Assembly (NCBI GenBank): GCA_017450025.1
Contig: JAFSYJ010000039.1
Coordinates: 88,681 to 152,680 of the forward strand
Direction: 5' to 3'
Source of the DNA: Clostridia bacterium
Lineage (GTDB): Bacteria > Bacillota > Clostridia > UMGS1883 > UMGS1540
DNA length: 64,000 nucleotides
The notes beneath the pieces were generated by a model. The model saw only the letters and a program-made list of their open reading frames with translations. It was not told where the DNA came from and made no database searches. Within the stretch, counting starts at the first letter, position 1; each line of letters starts with the position of its first letter. Of this stretch, positions 54,970 to 64,000 are shown in pieces. The position numbers and the translations under genes were made by a program.

Positions 54970-57900
54970 TCAAAATGTTATGCAAAGTTCGTGTTTTTTG
55001 CCGTCGTTTACAAGCTTGACCGCGTTTTCGCCGCGTGTTCCCGTGCGGTTTACGGTTATTTTATACTCTGTTTCACGGTGGGTGTATATGACCTCATACC
55101 CGTTCCAGCCATCGGGCAGGCTCGGTGTGACAGTCAGTGTGTCGCCCTCCTTTTGTATGCCCAAGATATACCTCACCGCAAGCACATACATCCACGACGC
55201 CGCGCCCGTGTACCAGCTCCAGCCGCCCCTGCCCTCGTTGGGCGGTGCGGAATATATATCCGCCGCCAGAGCGTACGGCTCCGTTTTGTATTTTTGCGCG
55301 CCCTCCGCTGTTTTTGTGCGGTTTATGGGGTTTATCGCCGCAAATATCTCCGCCGCGTCGTTGTTCATACCGAGCTCGGCACACGCTATCGCAAGCCACA
55401 CGGCGGCGTGGGTGTACTGTCCGCCGTTTTCACGCACGCCGGGGATATAGCTTTTAATATAGCCGGGGTTTTCCGCACTTTTGTCAAACGGCGGCGTTAA
55501 AAGCTTTACTATGCCGTTTTTTCTGTCAAAAAGGTGCTCTAAAGCCGATTTCACCGCGGCCTCGGCGCGCTTTTTATCAGCCGCGCCCGATATTACCGCC
55601 CACGACTGGCTGACGGAGTCGATATAGCACTCCGCGTTTTCCTTTGAGCCTATCGGTCTTCCGTCGTCGTAAAAGGCTCTTTTGTACCATTCGCCGTCCC
55701 ACGCGTTTTGCTCTATATTTTGGGCGATTTTGTCGGCGCAGTTTTCGTACATCTTTGCCGTGTCTGTATCGCCCTGTTCGCGGCATACGGGAGCAAACTC
55801 CCGCAAAACCTTTATCATAAAAAAGCTGAGCCACACGCTTTCGCCCTTGCCGCCGAGCCCTACGCGGTTAAAGCCGTCGTTCCAGTCGCCGCCGCCTATA
55901 AGCGGCAGTCCGTTCTGCCCGAAGCGAAGCGACGCATCAACGGCGCGTCTGCAATGCGCGTAAAGGCTTTCTTTGCCACCTTTTTCGCACACCTCAAAAT
56001 ATCTCTCGTTTTCGTCTTTTTTTAGGGGTTCAGCAATTATATAGTCGGCTTCTTCCTGCAAAATGCTAAAGTCGCCTGTCACCTTTATATATTCGCACAC
56101 GACATACACGAGCCAAAGTCTGTCGTCGGAGATGCGCGTTCTTACACCCTTGTCGGGCGCGCCCTCGTGCCACCAATGCATAGCGTCGCCCTCGGTGAAC
56201 TGGTGTGCGGCGGCTCTTAAAATCTGCTCCTTTGCCAAATCGGGTCTGGCGTACAAAAGGGATATGACATCCTGAAGCTGGTCACGGAAGCCGTATGCGC
56301 CGCCCGACTGGTAAAATCCGCTCCTGCCAAAGAGCCTGCAAACTGCGCTTTGGTATAAAAGTCTGTCGTTTACGAGCCTGTCGAATGATTCGTCGGGCGT
56401 TGTGACCTTGATATTACTGAAAGACGAAAAGAACTTTTTACACTCTGCAAAATGAGCGGCGGCGTTGTTTTTATACTTTTCCGAAAGCTTCTGAATACCG
56501 CCGTCGTCCTCCGCAGCGCCGAGCAAAAATACGCACTCGCCCGTACCAAAGCCCGACACCTCGATATGATTTACCGCCTCAATATAAAAATCGTCTCCGT
56601 ACGCTTCGGGTATTTCTATACCTGTTCCGCGCAGTTTTAAAAAGCACTCTGCGCCGCTCAAAAACAGCTTTGCGCCGTCTTCAAAGGCGTTTTCGCAAAC
56701 TGCCGCGCCGCCCGTTTTGCGCGCTTTTAGTCTGCCTCTTGTATCATACATTTTAACGCCGCAAACAGGCGTGAGCAAATACGATATTTTATATTTTTTG
56801 GCTTCATTTGTTCTGTTTTTGACTTTTGCCCATATTATCTTAACGCCGTCCTGCGGCGGCGCAAACGCCGTGACGCTGACATCTCCGTTTGTGTATTCCG
56901 TATATCCTGCACCGTGGCGTGTTTCTGTTTGAATTCCCGTCTCAAATAAAAGTCTGTCGCCGTCAAGCACCTTAAAAATCTCTGTCGGTGCGTCTGTTAC
57001 GGGGTCGTTATGCCACTCTGTCAGGCGCATCTCGTGGCTGTTTTTATACCAAGTGTAGCCGCCGCCGTTTTCGCCCGCCACAAAGCCTATATCGCCGTTT
57101 GAGACAACATTTACCCACGGTGCCGGCGTTTGTGCCGTTATTACATACTCGTTTTTACCGTTAAAGCCCCCGTACGAATTATAAAAATGCAGCTCTTCGC
57201 CCGCGCGTTTTGTTTCGGGGCAGGCGGCATCTTTGGGCGCAAGGCGTATGCCAAAGTCCGTTTTAACGCTTTCAAGTCCGCCCTCCTTTGCGTCTGCATA
57301 AAGGCGCGACGCGGCGACAAGAAGCGTTTTGTCCCCGGGCAGTATCTCCTGCCCTCCGATTATGAATATCCCGCCCTTTTGCGACAAAACTCCCGACGGA
57401 ATATGCTCCTTGACCTCGTCAAAAAGCGGCGTGCTATACCCGACCGCCTCATCGCAGAGTACCGCGAGGTCAAAGTGTATGCCGCGGTGCATAAAATATG
57501 CGTGCGCGCGGATAAACTGCGCGAGAAAATCTATATCTCCGCTGTCGCTTATGCGGAGTACCGCTATCGGCAAATCGCCTGAAATCCCAAGCTTCCAGAG
57601 CTCTTTGAGGCTTTTTTTGTTTTCCCTTATGCACTCCCTTTGTCTTTCGCACGGAAAGCCGCCGTAATACAAAAGCGGCAGAACTGACAAAAACAGCTCC
57701 TCCTCTCCCTCGCATAGCGCGGTTTTTTCGACTGCGCGTGCGGTTTGTATGTGATTTTCGGCATTTTGGCTGTACTTTTTTGCCGTTTGAACTGCCTTTT
57801 CGCGCGTTTCGCAGATGCCTGCGGCAATACACAAAGACGCGCTCTCGCCCTTCGGGATATTAAGCCTTACGCGCGCCGCGAAGCAGCTTTCCAAGGTGTT

Positions 57901-60900
57901 GCCCGTCGTGTTTTCGACTTTTGGCTCGCCTTGTACCGCGTCAAACACAGTATTGCCGCGCCCCAGAAATTTTGCCCTGTCAGCTTCATACGCGACTTCC
58001 GCTCCGTCGCAAGAGACAGTAAAAAACGCAGTATATTCACTCTCGCCCTCCGAGCGTGTGCGCCTTTTGGCGAGCAGCACTCCGTCTTTTAGCTCCGTCG
58101 TCAGAAAAAGCCCCGAAAACACGCTATGCGCAGATTCGCTCTCGTATGTGTCGAGCGCGAGGTCGGTATAAGCTATTACCTCGACTTCCTTCGCTTCGCC
58201 GCTTTTATTGACTATGCTCATACGGCGCAGTTCCGCGCAGTCCTCGGGCATTACGCATATCTTGAGGTCCGTCGATATTTCGCCCGTGTCTGTCTTAAAG
58301 GTCGCAGACGACGGCGTAAAAATGCACCTGCCGTCGTACGCGCTTTTGGCGGTTTTATCTGCCGTTTTGACAAAGATATTTATGCCGCTGCCTCGCTTGC
58401 CGGGGTCGGGGCGTTTTTTGCCGAGGTAAACGCCCTCGCGCGAGCTTACGCCTTCGCCGTGCGTATCGAGCAGCACCGTATATGAGCCGTTTGAAAGCAC
58501 TGTCATCTTTGGCAAAACAGAACGGTCGTTTTCAAACTCCCTGATACATTCCGCAGTCTCGCGCCAGCGGTTTTTGACGGGCGGTATCCTGTGGCGCGCC
58601 TCTTTCGTGACCTTGACGCGCACCGGAACTTTTTCCTGAAGCAAAGGCTCAGCCGCCTTGACTTCGGGGTACGAATGAAATCTCTTTTGCATCGCTTCAT
58701 CGCAAAGCGCGTTGACTATCGACGCAAAGCCCATTCCCTGATGATGCGCCATATAGCTTTTGCAAATCATACTTCTCCTGCCCTGTGTGCGCGACGGCGT
58801 GTAGTCTATCGCCTCGTAAAATCCGTAATCGCCCTCCGCGCCTTCCTTTTTGAGCATCAAGAGGTTATAAACCGCGCTTTTGGGGTTCACCGCGAGCGCA
58901 AGCATCGTACTGTACGGCGACACGACAACATCGTCGGCAAGTCCGCGCTTTACGCCGAGCGCCGGCACTCCGAATGCCTTATAGCGATAGTTGAGGTTTA
59001 CATCAAAGCCGTAAAATGCGGATTCCGATGTTCCCCACGGCACGCGCCTTTTATGCGCGTATTTTTTCTGGCAATGAAGCGCAAAAAAGTAACCCTCGTC
59101 AAGAAGCGTGTTTTTGTAGTTTTTCATAATTATAAGCGGCATCAGGTACTCAAACATCGTGCCTGTCCACGAGATGAGACCTTTATAGCCGTCCGAGCCT
59201 GTCAGCGTCCGCGAAAGTCTGAACCAGTCCTTTGGCTTTATCTCGCCGCGCGCCGCCGCCAAAAACACGCTCTGCCGCGCCTCACTTGCCAAAATATCGT
59301 AATACGACGGCGAAAGCCGCGCTTCCTCGATATTGTAGCCTATCGAAAAAAGCTTTTTTTTGGAGTCGAAAAGGTCTTTGAAATGCGTCTCTGAAACGAG
59401 CTTGTCAATCCTCATTGAAAGGAGCTCGCTTTTCGCGCCGCCGTACTCGCGCAGTCCCTGTGAAACTGTCATCATATAGCATATAAAGTTACCGCTGTCG
59501 ACGGTCGAAACATACCTCGGATAAAGCGGCTTTAAGGTTACCGTATCGTACCAGTTAAGAAGGTGTCCGCGCCATTTTTCGAGCTTTTCCACGGTGTCGA
59601 GCGTGGCGGCAATTTTTTCTTCCATAGTCTCTGTCGTTATAAAGCCGAGGTCGCGTGCGCCCAAAACCGCGAGCAGGTAAAGCCCGATATTTGTGGGGCT
59701 TGTCCTGTGCGCCGCGCCCTTATACGGTCTGAACTGCACATTGTCGGGCGGCAGAAAGTTATCCGTACTCTGTGTATAATCCTCAAAAAACTGCCATATT
59801 TTACGCGCGGTTTCAAGGAGAAATTTGCGGCTTCTGCCCGACAGCTTTACAGTATCATTGCCGTCACGGCTGATTATATATGCGAGTGCAGGCGCAAACG
59901 CCCATATAACTGCAAAAATAAGTGCCGTGCCTGCGTATTCGCCGCCTTTTGCAAATGATATTAAGAGAGTCAAGGCACTCGCTGCAACGCTTGACGCCAT
60001 AAGCGAATAATACCCTGCCATTCCTCCGCTTTTTCCCCTTTCGGCATCTGCGGCGGTCACCCACTCCAGCGTGTGTTTTTTGGTAAACGATATTCTGTAA
60101 ACTGTTCTGACAGCCGCGTCAGCCGCCATAAATCCCTGATACGCCAAAAACGAAACGCCGAGTATAAACCTGAAAAACAGAGCCTTTGCCCCGAATATGA
60201 CATTTGAGTTGCGCTTTTCTCTTACATAAAGCGCGCGGCGGCTGAATATCGTATCCAGAACATAAAGCAAAAGCGGCAGTACAAGCGATGCCATTACAAG
60301 TCCGACGCCAAATGCGGCAAAGCCCGAACTGAACGCTCCTGCAAAAATGAGCAGTACCGCCTGAAAAAACGGCGTTATGCTCCTGCGGAGGTTATCGGTG
60401 ATTTTCCACTTTGAAAGCGCGCTTATTTCGTTTTTGACCTTTTTTCCGTCAGCCGTTTTAACGCGGCGCATAAGCCACGGCAAAAGCTGCCAATCACCCC
60501 TTATCCAGCGGTGAAGTCTCTTGGAATATCCGTCAAATCCCGATGGGTAGCCGTCATAGACCTCGGCGCCTGTGCAGAGCGCGCAGCGCAGGTACGAGCC
60601 TTCCAGAAGGTCGTGGCTCAAAACGGTGTTTTCGGGTATCGACTCTTTGGCGCACAAAAGATATGCGTCAATGTCAAAAATTCCCTTGCCCGTAAAAATT
60701 GCATCGCCGAAAACATCCATATACAAGTCGGACACCGACGCGGAGTAAGGGTCTGTGCCGCCCTGTCCTGCAAATATGCGCGAAAACGCCGTACGCGACG
60801 CACTGACGGCATCAAGGCTGACCTTTGGCTTAATTATTCCGTAGCCTTTTGTCACAATGCGCCTGTCACTATCTGTCACCGCCTTATTAAGAGGGTGTGC

Positions 60901-62238
60901 CGCCGCTCCGCAGAGCTTTGCCGCGCCGCCTATCGGAAGAACGGTGTCCGAATCAAGCGTTAAAATGTACTTTATATCTTGAAGAGCGTCAGTATCGCCC
61001 ACAATCCTGTCAAAGCTGCCTTCGCCGCGCAAATACGAGCATAGCTGTACAAGTGCGCCTCTTTTGCGCTCCCACGCCATATATTTGCCCTGTTTTTCGT
61101 TCCATTCGCGGCGGCGCACAAACAGGAAAAACCTATGCCCGTACTTTTCGCACAGTCTTGTTATGCCTTCCTCCGCCGCACCTACAATCCTCTCATCATC
61201 AGGTTTTGAGGGCGTGACTGCGTCCTTCAAATCGCCGAGCAGAACGAACACCAGGTTATCGTATTTATTGGCGTGGTAGCACACCTCAAGCCGCTCGCAC
61301 ATCTCGGCGGCACTTTCTTCGCCTGTCAACAGAACGGGATAAACGACGGCAGTTTTGGCACTTTTGGGGATACCGCCGTCAAAGTCCAGCGCAGGCAATA
61401 TGCGCGGCTTTGTAATGCGCGAAATTATAAAATTTGCAAATGTCACGGCGATTTCAAACGCGGGAAACGCGAGTAGCAAAAGCCCTGCGGCGGATTTGGT
61501 ATCGCCGTACGCCCACGCCGTGAGCGCGGCAAAGAATACCGCGGTGAGGCTTATATAAATGTATTTTGAGCGGTTTTTGGAAGCCCTTATTCCGAGCGTT
61601 TTACAAAGTACCTCCCTGCCCTCGCCGACGAGGTAGTACCCCGCGCAGCTCTCGCGCTCCGACTTGCCTGACCTGGCGCAGGACAAGGCGTTTTCAGCGA
61701 CTATGTTTTCGCTTTTTCCGCTTTTGAGCGCAAGGCGAAGCGCCGCTCGTCTGTACAGATCGCGCGTTTCCGCCGTCAGGTGCTTGAATTCGCTTGCCAA
61801 AACCCTGTCGCAGGCGCAGAACCTTGTCTGCTTTTCGCCCATATCGATATCGCCGAGCGCGACAAGCGACTGAATACAGTTGCCCATTTCTTCACCCGTC
61901 GCGGCAGCTATGTTTTTGCACATCTCCCCGATATGCTCTATAACGGCAGCCTTAAGATACAGCGTAAACACCGCAAGTCTGTCGCTTCGCAAGGCGTTTT
62001 GCTCCAAAAATGCGTCGAGCGAAGCCTCGTCAGCCTTATAGCCAAACGACCTGACAGCGCGCGCCGCAAGCCGTGCGAGGTCCTTGTCGCGGCGCTTTAC
62101 CGACGCTTTTATGTCCTTTATGTCGCGCTCTATTATATAATAGTTATCCAAAAGCCACTCCTCTGCCGTAGTGATGTTTTTTTTGCCGTACAGAGCGGCA
62201 CATGTCCTGGATATAGTCTTGATGCTGCATATTTTCAT
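54970..62238 (-). CDS. Giant NdvB/ChvB-like cyclic beta-glucan synthase (GT84 + glycoamylase-like + GH94)
   Basis: 2,422 aa. After a helical N-terminus come membrane helices (about 225-270), then a GT84 domain with LDSDT near 429 and RLHRWIRGDWQ near 578, and further helices (about 620-670 and 690-800). A glycoamylase-like domain follows (SWTGTMFEY near 1020, VPWGTSESAFYGF near 1068). The C-terminal third holds GH94 phosphorylase-type modules: FRDQLQD near 1985 and GGGDWNDGFNRVG near 2118, its Asp in the position of the GH94 general acid. Rhizobial ChvB is about 2,830 aa, so this is a shorter version. Product (cyclic beta-1,2-glucan or other) is inferred. Good GAGGTGA site; no promoter recognised. 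Confidence 0.88.
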   Translation of the reverse strand: MKICSIKTISRTCAALYGKKNITTAEEWLLDNYYIIERDIKDIKASVKRRDKDLARLAARAVRSFGYKADEASLDAFLEQNALRSDRLAVFTLYLKAAVIEHIGEMCKNIAAATGEEMGNCIQSLVALGDIDMGEKQTRFCACDRVLASEFKHLTAETRDLYRRAALRLALKSGKSENIVAENALSCARSGKSERESCAGYYLVGEGREVLCKTLGIRASKNRSKYIYISLTAVFFAALTAWAYGDTKSAAGLLLLAFPAFEIAVTFANFIISRITKPRILPALDFDGGIPKSAKTAVVYPVLLTGEESAAEMCERLEVCYHANKYDNLVFVLLGDLKDAVTPSKPDDERIVGAAEEGITRLCEKYGHRFFLFVRRREWNEKQGKYMAWERKRGALVQLCSYLRGEGSFDRIVGDTDALQDIKYILTLDSDTVLPIGGAAKLCGAAAHPLNKAVTDSDRRIVTKGYGIIKPKVSLDAVSASRTAFSRIFAGQGGTDPYSASVSDLYMDVFGDAIFTGKGIFDIDAYLLCAKESIPENTVLSHDLLEGSYLRCALCTGAEVYDGYPSGFDGYSKRLHRWIRGDWQLLPWLMRRVKTADGKKVKNEISALSKWKITDNLRRSITPFFQAVLLIFAGAFSSGFAAFGVGLVMASLVLPLLLYVLDTIFSRRALYVREKRNSNVIFGAKALFFRFILGVSFLAYQGFMAADAAVRTVYRISFTKKHTLEWVTAADAERGKSGGMAGYYSLMASSVAASALTLLISFAKGGEYAGTALIFAVIWAFAPALAYIISRDGNDTVKLSGRSRKFLLETARKIWQFFEDYTQSTDNFLPPDNVQFRPYKGAAHRTSPTNIGLYLLAVLGARDLGFITTETMEEKIAATLDTVEKLEKWRGHLLNWYDTVTLKPLYPRYVSTVDSGNFICYMMTVSQGLREYGGAKSELLSMRIDKLVSETHFKDLFDSKKKLFSIGYNIEEARLSPSYYDILASEARQSVFLAAARGEIKPKDWFRLSRTLTGSDGYKGLISWTGTMFEYLMPLIIMKNYKNTLLDEGYFFALHCQKKYAHKRRVPWGTSESAFYGFDVNLNYRYKAFGVPALGVKRGLADDVVVSPYSTMLALAVNPKSAVYNLLMLKKEGAEGDYGFYEAIDYTPSRTQGRRSMICKSYMAHHQGMGFASIVNALCDEAMQKRFHSYPEVKAAEPLLQEKVPVRVKVTKEARHRIPPVKNRWRETAECIREFENDRSVLPKMTVLSNGSYTVLLDTHGEGVSSREGVYLGKKRPDPGKRGSGINIFVKTADKTAKSAYDGRCIFTPSSATFKTDTGEISTDLKICVMPEDCAELRRMSIVNKSGEAKEVEVIAYTDLALDTYESESAHSVFSGLFLTTELKDGVLLAKRRTRSEGESEYTAFFTVSCDGAEVAYEADRAKFLGRGNTVFDAVQGEPKVENTTGNTLESCFAARVRLNIPKGESASLCIAAGICETREKAVQTAKKYSQNAENHIQTARAVEKTALCEGEEELFLSVLPLLYYGGFPCERQRECIRENKKSLKELWKLGISGDLPIAVLRISDSGDIDFLAQFIRAHAYFMHRGIHFDLAVLCDEAVGYSTPLFDEVKEHIPSGVLSQKGGIFIIGGQEILPGDKTLLVAASRLYADAKEGGLESVKTDFGIRLAPKDAACPETKRAGEELHFYNSYGGFNGKNEYVITAQTPAPWVNVVSNGDIGFVAGENGGGYTWYKNSHEMRLTEWHNDPVTDAPTEIFKVLDGDRLLFETGIQTETRHGAGYTEYTNGDVSVTAFAPPQDGVKIIWAKVKNRTNEAKKYKISYLLTPVCGVKMYDTRGRLKARKTGGAAVCENAFEDGAKLFLSGAECFLKLRGTGIEIPEAYGDDFYIEAVNHIEVSGFGTGECVFLLGAAEDDGGIQKLSEKYKNNAAAHFAECKKFFSSFSNIKVTTPDESFDRLVNDRLLYQSAVCRLFGRSGFYQSGGAYGFRDQLQDVISLLYARPDLAKEQILRAAAHQFTEGDAMHWWHEGAPDKGVRTRISDDRLWLVYVVCEYIKVTGDFSILQEEADYIIAEPLKKDENERYFEVCEKGGKESLYAHCRRAVDASLRFGQNGLPLIGGGDWNDGFNRVGLGGKGESVWLSFFMIKVLREFAPVCREQGDTDTAKMYENCADKIAQNIEQNAWDGEWYKRAFYDDGRPIGSKENAECYIDSVSQSWAVISGAADKKRAEAAVKSALEHLFDRKNGIVKLLTPPFDKSAENPGYIKSYIPGVRENGGQYTHAAVWLAIACAELGMNNDAAEIFAAINPINRTKTAEGAQKYKTEPYALAADIYSAPPNEGRGGWSWYTGAASWMYVLAVRYILGIQKEGDTLTVTPSLPDGWNGYEVIYTHRETEYKITVNRTGTRGENAVKLVNDGKKHELCITF

Positions 62239-63456: not shown

Positions 63457-63464
63457 GATTGGAT

Positions 63465-63503
63465 AAAAAAAACGGGCAGCGTTTTGCGTCGCCCGTTTTT
63501 TTC
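63465..63503. terminator. Bidirectional terminator
   Basis: ACGGGC ... GCCCGT stem (63472-63477 and 63491-63496) flanked by eight A on the left and seven T on the right. It lies between the PP2C-like gene on plus and the 54-residue gene on minus. Confidence 0.85.
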
Positions 63504-63513
63504 TGATGTTTTA

Positions 63514-63678
63514 TTACAAAAAATTATCGGCGCACCTGCGCAAATCATCAAGGTTTCTTATGGTGTCCGCCCTGTCCTCAATGAATTCGCGCACATATTC
63601 GGGCAACTCCTGATAAAATTCCTCCGCCTCAAAATCCTCCTCCAACAAGTCAAACAAATCGTAAAATTGTTCTGACAT
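63514..63678 (-). CDS. Small acidic protein, 54 aa, unknown function
   Basis: An open frame of 54 codons starting ATG 63678 and ending TAA 63514. It is preceded by AGGAGGTGA, a perfect Shine-Dalgarno site at 4 nt, and followed after 11 bp by a terminator, so it is very likely translated. The protein starts MSEQFYDLFDLLEEDFEAEE and is rich in Glu, Asp, Leu and Phe, with later segments PEYVREFIEDRADTIRN and LDDLRRCADNFL; it is probably all helical and soluble. No family recognised. Confidence 0.75.
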   Translation of the reverse strand: MSEQFYDLFDLLEEDFEAEEFYQELPEYVREFIEDRADTIRNLDDLRRCADNFL

Positions 63679-63809
63679 AAAATCACCTCCTGATTTAAGT
63701 ATTTACAAAAAAACAATTATAATACAGGCTTGTTAAAATCGCGCAGAACGCAAAATACAACAATGATTTAGATTTAGATAGCAAAGATTTATTGTAAATT
63801 TAATATGAT
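63679..63809 (-). other. AT-rich intergenic stretch between RNA element and small gene
   Basis: Holds the ribosome site of the 54-residue gene and, on the minus strand, a TATAAT near 63717-63722 without a convincing -35. No open frame with a ribosome site is seen. Confidence 0.5.
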
Positions 63810-64000
63810 AAACCCGAATACAATTCGGGTTTGATAATAAGCATTTTGCTACGAACAAACTTCGCCTCTCGAGCGTCGGCGTTTGTAGGTAACTTAGCTC
63901 CAATCCGCCCTTGACGGTCGGATTTTACGCCCGTACTACGACGCCTCCTTTTCCCCAAAAGGCAACAGCCTTTCGGGGACCCCATTATGTATGCCTTCAG
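63810..64000 (-). ncRNA. Candidate structured non-coding RNA (5' end near or beyond window edge)
   Basis: Minus-strand stretch denser in paired segments than any other gap here. Stems: CCCC-G-AAAGGC / GCCTTT-T-GGGG with TGTT loop (63953-63978), AATCCG / CGGATT (63902-63924), CTAC-AAAC / GTTT-GTTC-GTAG with a bulge (about 63848-63888), a possible long-range GCGTCG / CGACGC pairing, and a perfect terminal 10 bp hairpin AAACCCGAAT-ACA-ATTCGGGTTT (63810-63832). The last resembles a terminator but has a poor T-run. A 61-codon frame here lacks a ribosome site and looks accidental. The raiA motif of Bacillota is one candidate family; I cannot confirm it by eye. Confidence 0.6.

What the first reader, a model, noticed from the sequence alone, without database searches (positions are those of the whole stretch)
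63805..64000. Densely structured, probably non-coding RNA at the right edge
The minus strand carries an 11 bp hairpin with TGTT loop, a 6 bp hairpin, a long interrupted stem, a possible long-range GCGTCG/CGACGC pairing and a perfect 10 bp terminal hairpin within about 190 nt. Base composition is much richer in GC than the flanking AT-rich gap, and the only open frame lacks a ribosome site. Size and complexity fit a large ncRNA class such as raiA, but the identity is not established and the 5' end may lie outside the window.
Basis: partly seen in the sequence, partly recalled or inferred. Interest (0 to 1): 0.65.

Follow-up and report, generated by a model that had tools for sequence, protein, structure and literature searches.

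The report
Mobile RNA-like repeat at gene ends
The folded stretch at the window's edge is one copy of an apparently undescribed, protein-free mobile repeat. It is scattered through the genomes of gut Clostridia. Copies keep their folded shape even when their letters change, and most sit, in one fixed orientation, right at the stop codon of a neighbouring gene.

Summary
The structure is real, but it is not a single-locus ncRNA of the raiA kind; no Rfam family matches. It is one long-form copy of a dispersed repeat. The copy spans window 63,727 to 64,059 on the minus strand, so 59 nt lie outside the window. The covariance model finds the family in 25 of 28 genomes of the order (up to at least 49 copies per genome) and 54 of 391 of the class. 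No match appeared outside the class, in viral contigs, phages or plasmids. Each copy has a terminal stem, a conserved arm A and a variable arm B. Covariation is strong: one arm-A pair is intact in 65/65 copies as G-C, A-U, G-U or C-G. Near-identical copies with unrelated flanks, and empty orthologous sites, show mobility. No target-site duplication, internal gene or consistent known transposase was found. Where the gene on the element's 3' side is antisense, the element ends within 12 nt of, or just past, its stop codon in 73 of 84 cases (19 expected). The window copy also carries a second, independently dispersed structured repeat nested in arm A. Best reading: a BOX/MITE-like mobile element recognised by its folded strand. 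How it moves is unknown.

The parts
63727..64000 (-). Outer element, long form; continues 59 nt beyond the window (L039:6408-6740, 333 nt in all)
   Evidence: Ends defined by complementarity of terminal arms and by comparison with copies in G000, G003 and other genomes
63727..63751 (-). 3' terminal-stem arm (GCGTTCTGCGCGATTTTAACAAGCC); partner arm GGCGCAGGAAAAATGGTGCAGAACG lies outside the window
   Evidence: Cognate arms pair far better than swapped arms across 65 copies, z = -14.9, and within each sequence type
63750..63758 (-). Arm B, 3' strand (GTATTTTGC), pairs with 63841-63849
   Evidence: Arm B covaries across copies: z = -13.1; A-U/U-A swaps at columns 145:269
63810..63832 (-). Perfect 10-bp hairpin inside arm B; a hairpin is kept at this place in other copies though its sequence differs
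63841..63849 (-). Arm B, 5' strand (GCAAAATGC)
63850..63872 (-). Arm A, 3' strand: conserved CTCGAGAGGCGAAGTTTGTTCGTA; the 5' strand GGACAAACTGAGCC is outside the window
   Evidence: Repeated in 18 of 60 related genomes by DNA search; base pair after CUGA intact in 65/65 copies
63874..63983 (-). Nested inner module: hairpin 63953-63978, AAAAGGAG linker, stem 63936-63945 / 63878-63888 enclosing hairpin 63902-63924
   Evidence: Three compensatory pair changes in four copies, 4/500 shuffles as good; module also occurs alone in other genomes

Best explanation
It is a copy of a non-autonomous mobile element of gut Clostridia, a BOX/MITE-like structured interspersed repeat. It spreads by means of machinery encoded elsewhere that recognises the folded forward strand (window minus strand) rather than a fixed end sequence. 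It is placed at, or kept only at, gene 3' ends with its 3' end at the stop codon of an antisense neighbour. SHOWN: dispersal, copy number, terminal inverted arms, covariation of terminal stem, arm A and arm B, invariant unpaired bases in arm A, recent multiplication into unrelated sites, empty orthologous sites, the stop-codon position with fixed orientation, and the nesting of a second repeat in the window copy. INFERRED: that the folded strand (single-stranded DNA or RNA) is what the mobilising enzyme binds, and that an unidentified trans-acting enzyme moves it. The window copy itself is one of the minority lying between two genes on its own strand (dut upstream, a small ORF downstream), not docked at an antisense stop.
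For: 25/28 genomes of the order and 54/391 of the class carry it. Copies 95-96% identical have flanks only 31-37% alike. Empty orthologous sites. Covariation and cognate-arm tests, also within sequence types. In the paired columns, non-Watson-Crick cells are 63 G-U against 1 A-C on the forward strand, at 7 positions against 1, so the forward strand is the one under constraint. 3' end within 12 nt of, or inside, an antisense stop in 73/84 copies against 19.1 expected from a uniform position in the gap (maximum 33 in 100,000 simulations); the 5' side shows no such excess, 4/84. For co-directional gene pairs 45 copies point one way and 13 the other, p = 3e-5. 9 of 10 sampled docked genes have Pfam domains.
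Against: No transposase, autonomous long copy or target-site duplication was found, so movement is inferred from products only. Empty sites are from species about 70-90% alike, so exact junctions are unresolved. Strong conservation inside arm A could instead mean a cellular RNA function.
Confidence: 0.72

Rival explanations
1. A functional RNA element of the cell: a 3'-UTR or terminator-like structure that selection keeps next to stop codons, with dispersal secondary.
For: Invariant unpaired nucleotides and covarying stems. Position right at stop codons. 38 of 55 copies with a co-directional upstream gene lie just after a terminator-like hairpin, against 14 of 49 with an antisense upstream gene. 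SPRITE repeats of pneumococcus are thought to be co-opted terminators (PMC3049150).
Against: The constrained strand is antisense to the gene whose stop codon it abuts. The copy number differs from at least 49 to 0 within one order. Some copies sit between closely packed co-directional genes where an orthologue has overlapping genes and no element.
Confidence: 0.2
2. An ordinary DNA-transposase MITE whose parent insertion sequence is simply missing from the assemblies, with target duplications eroded or very short.
For: Terminal inverted arms, no coding capacity, high copy number, intergenic sites, nested insertion: the standard MITE picture (PMC10969869, PMC3049150).
Against: No direct flanking repeat beyond chance in 105 copies. 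End sequences vary widely while staying complementary, which sequence-specific end recognition does not predict. The most conserved part is internal.
Confidence: 0.3
3. attC-like recombination sites: folded single strands located just after stop codons and moved by an integron-type tyrosine recombinase.
For: Same position after the stop codon, structure kept over sequence, and the constrained strand is the template strand of the docked gene, as in attC (the attC features are general knowledge).
Against: No integron integrase above the family cut-off in 28 genomes. Copies are dispersed beside housekeeping genes and not in cassette arrays; element ends lack the attC R boxes on inspection.
Confidence: 0.07
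4. A stand-alone trans-acting ncRNA.
For: Covariation, complexity and strand-specific constraint.
Against: Tens of copies per genome with changing neighbours, terminal inverted arms, no Rfam match. No promoter analysis was run.
Confidence: 0.1

Closest known systems
BOX elements of Streptococcus pneumoniae (boxA-boxB-boxC)
   Same: Short interspersed, modular, tightly folded with terminal arms paired, variable central module, intergenic, enriched between convergent genes, no firmly established mobilising enzyme (PMC3049150).
   Different: Found across at least 32 genera of the class rather than mainly one species group; precise docking at stop codons in one orientation; constrained internal arm; central insert is an independent repeat family; sequence relation to BOX not tested.
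MITEs in general (RUP, ERIC, QMITE, Correia)
   Same: Terminal inverted repeats, non-coding, high copy, stable fold, nested insertions (PMC10969869).
   Different: No target-site duplication detected; end sequences drift with compensation; no parent IS found.
REPIN/RAYT
   Same: Folded palindromic mobile DNA moved in trans (PMC3116915, abstract only; general knowledge).
   Different: Far larger; the Y1 transposase family is absent from 8 of 14 carrier genomes.
Integron attC sites
   Same: After stop codons, fold recognised rather than sequence, template strand (general knowledge).
   Different: No integron integrase, no cassettes, dispersed.
Group IIC introns (terminator-targeted retroelements)
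   Same: Sit next to terminator hairpins in fixed orientation (general knowledge).
   Different: No group II match in the Rfam scan; reverse transcriptase absent from 11 of 14 carrier genomes.

Membership tests
raiA or any other Rfam RNA class | Match to the covariance model | tested here: not met
   No match reaching a gathering score over the element in 3 scans of 4227 families, including 16 loci with copies; the L20-leader hit at 63,458-63,565 is weak and outside the element
MITE | Terminal inverted repeats, non-coding, multiple dispersed copies | tested here: met
MITE | Target-site duplication on insertion | tested here: not met
   Direct flanking repeats of 4-8 nt within the range of shuffled pairs; no offset with consistent short repeats. 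Mean longest repeat 2.88 against 2.48 leaves a very short duplication possible
MITE | Ends shared with an autonomous transposon in the same host | tested here: inconclusive
   No copy with more than 268 nt between 5' motif and 3' core among 104, and no recurrent neighbouring gene; whole-genome search for a parent IS not done
BOX element | Modular folded repeat with paired ends and variable centre | tested here: met
BOX element | boxA/boxC sequence homology | not tested
   No BOX sequence was compared
Integron attC | Integron integrase in the genome | tested here: not met
   0 of 28 genomes over the TIGR02249 cut-off
REPIN / IS200-IS605 | Y1 transposase in carrier genomes | tested here: not met
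   Absent from 8 of 14 carriers; drafts, so absence is not absolute
Group II intron / retroelement | Reverse transcriptase in carrier genomes | tested here: not met
   Absent from 11 of 14; drafts
IS110 / bridge RNA element | IS110 transposase in carrier genomes | tested here: not met
   Only 1 of 14 over the cut-off; drafts

The most novel reading that the evidence does not exclude
A new class of bacterial mobile element, recognised as a folded single strand (DNA or RNA) and moved without target duplication by an unknown enzyme. It inserts precisely at stop codons in fixed orientation and serves as a host site for a second structured mobile repeat.
Probability: 0.3. Interest if true: 0.85.

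Novelty: new variant of a known kind. Interest (0 to 1): 0.62.

Why it matters
If the reading holds, tens of gene ends per genome in many gut Clostridia carry the same folded mobile unit, which has no Rfam match and was not found in the papers searched. Its placement at stop codons in one orientation poses a sharp question: what mobilising or selective mechanism sees the end of a coding sequence? Many copies lie at contig ends, so it may also break assemblies, and it can replace native stop codons, adding a -GM tail to some proteins.

Tried and rejected
Rfam classes. Coding explanation: frame broken in homologues. tRNA/tmRNA in the window: none. Phage or plasmid origin: no match in viral contigs, PLSDB or INPHARED. 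Integron, RAYT/IS200, reverse transcriptase and IS110 partners: integrase never over the cut-off, the other families missing from most carriers. Target-site duplication: none detected. Global alignment of filled and empty sites failed to place the insertion and was redone on joined flanks. Literature searches on MITEs in Ruminococcus/rumen, stop-codon repeats and CALIN found no description. The library holds open-licence papers only.

Full report
OBSERVATION. The true unit is larger: reading past the window and comparing copies gives ends at window 63,727 and 59 nt beyond 64,000, on the minus strand. No Rfam family matches it, and the 61-codon frame is not conserved.

A DISPERSED FAMILY. A DNA search of the window's own genome returned ten places, and 18 of 60 related genomes had hits. 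A covariance model of arm A found 25 of 28 genomes of the order, with up to 49 matches in one genome (a lower bound because only 150 candidates per genome were scored). It also found 54 of 391 genomes of the class in 32 of 223 genera, and nothing outside the class in a phylum-wide sample. A pattern scan of GTDB contigs gave 77 stretches, all in Clostridia, Oscillospiraceae or Ruminococcus MAGs, many labelled as ruminant or deer gut. Viral contigs, phages and plasmids gave none.

ANATOMY. The short form is about 240 nt. Its terminal stem runs from GGGGATAGGAAAAAATGnTTCAGAACG or GGGCGAAGAGAAAATAGTGCAGAACG to the complementary 3' arm. Arm A is GGACAAACUGA[G/A]CC ... CCCGAAG-hairpin-CGAGAGG[C/U]GAAGUUUGUUC. 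Arm B is GCAAAAGGC, a hairpin, AT-rich spacer, then GCCUUUUGC.

COVARIATION. The pair after CUGA is G-C in 36 copies, A-U in 25, G-U in 3 and C-G in 1, intact in all 65. Other pairs switch on both sides. Cognate terminal arms pair better than swapped arms (z = -14.9), as do arm B strands (z = -13.1); both hold within each end-sequence type (z -7.4 to -9.4). Non-Watson-Crick cells are 63 G-U against 1 A-C on the forward strand, so that strand is the one that folds. This does not separate RNA from single-stranded DNA. Relatedness of copies inflates shuffle tests, so the z values are indicative.

MOBILITY. In one genome, copies 95-96% identical lie in flanks 31-37% alike, which is what unrelated sequence gives. 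Orthologous intergenic gaps lacking the element were found for several copies. In one pair (L045 and L088) the empty genome has overlapping ATGA genes where the other carries the element. No target duplication was found. No recurrent neighbouring gene or long ORF-bearing copy was seen. Integron integrase scored below its family cut-off in all 28 genomes tested, and Y1 transposase, reverse transcriptase and IS110 transposase are missing from most carriers. These are draft genomes, so absences are not absolute.

STOP-CODON DOCKING. Among 84 copies with genes on both sides and an antisense gene on the element's 3' side, 73 end within 12 nt of that gene's stop codon or slightly inside it. Uniform placement in the same gaps predicts 19.1, with a maximum of 33 in 100,000 simulations. 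The 5' side shows only 4. The median distance is 1 nt, and stops are 51 TAA, 15 TGA and 8 TAG. Orientation is biased: 45 against 13 in co-directional pairs, 39 convergent against 2 divergent. In 12 copies the element supplies the stop, in six of them giving a protein ending in -GM. Nine of ten sampled docked genes have Pfam domains, including FolD, LytB and a pseudouridine synthase. Genes were called mechanically, so small ORFs are missed: the window copy was at first mis-scored as antisense because of a spurious plus-strand ORF, and by inspection lies between dut and a 54-aa ORF on the same strand. Insertion preference and selection were not separated.

NESTING. In the window copy and three copies of G003, arm A carries an insert of about 110 nt (hairpin, AAAAGGAG linker, stem with inner hairpin) whose four copies show three compensatory pair changes. 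The same module occurs without the outer element in other genomes, including 72-bp tandem arrays, so it is a second repeat family.

VERDICT. It works like a BOX/MITE-type non-autonomous mobile element. It meets the structural features of MITEs but not the target duplication, and no parent was found, so it is filed as a variant of that kind rather than a proven member. The mechanism of movement and any effect on neighbouring genes are open.

Noticed in passing
L208 (G010:C5) and L222 (G010:C28): The inner module's GGGGTCCCCGCAAAGCC...GGCTTTGTGGGGAAAAGGAG unit forms tandem arrays with a 72-bp period, without the outer element.
   Followed up: partly
G001 contigs C22, C23, C27, C36; L119, L180: Outer elements stand in head-to-tail arrays with a period of about 240 bp.
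   Followed up: no
L012, L032, L038, L045, L094, L096: Genes whose reading frame runs into the element end with an element-supplied stop, giving a C-terminal -GM.
   Followed up: partly
upstream of many copies, e.g. L015, L034, L088, L173: Small near-perfect terminator-like hairpins whose arms resemble the element's 3' end and its reverse complement precede the element; possibly internally deleted copies.
   Followed up: partly
window 63468-63502: An intrinsic-terminator-like hairpin (AAAACGGGCAGCGTTTTGCGTCGCCCGTTTTTTT, plus strand) lies between the element and the 356-aa plus-strand ORF, under the weak L20-leader match.
   Followed up: no
window 54970-62238, minus: A 2422-aa ORF, by appearance a very large glycan synthase/phosphorylase-like protein; not searched.
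   Followed up: no
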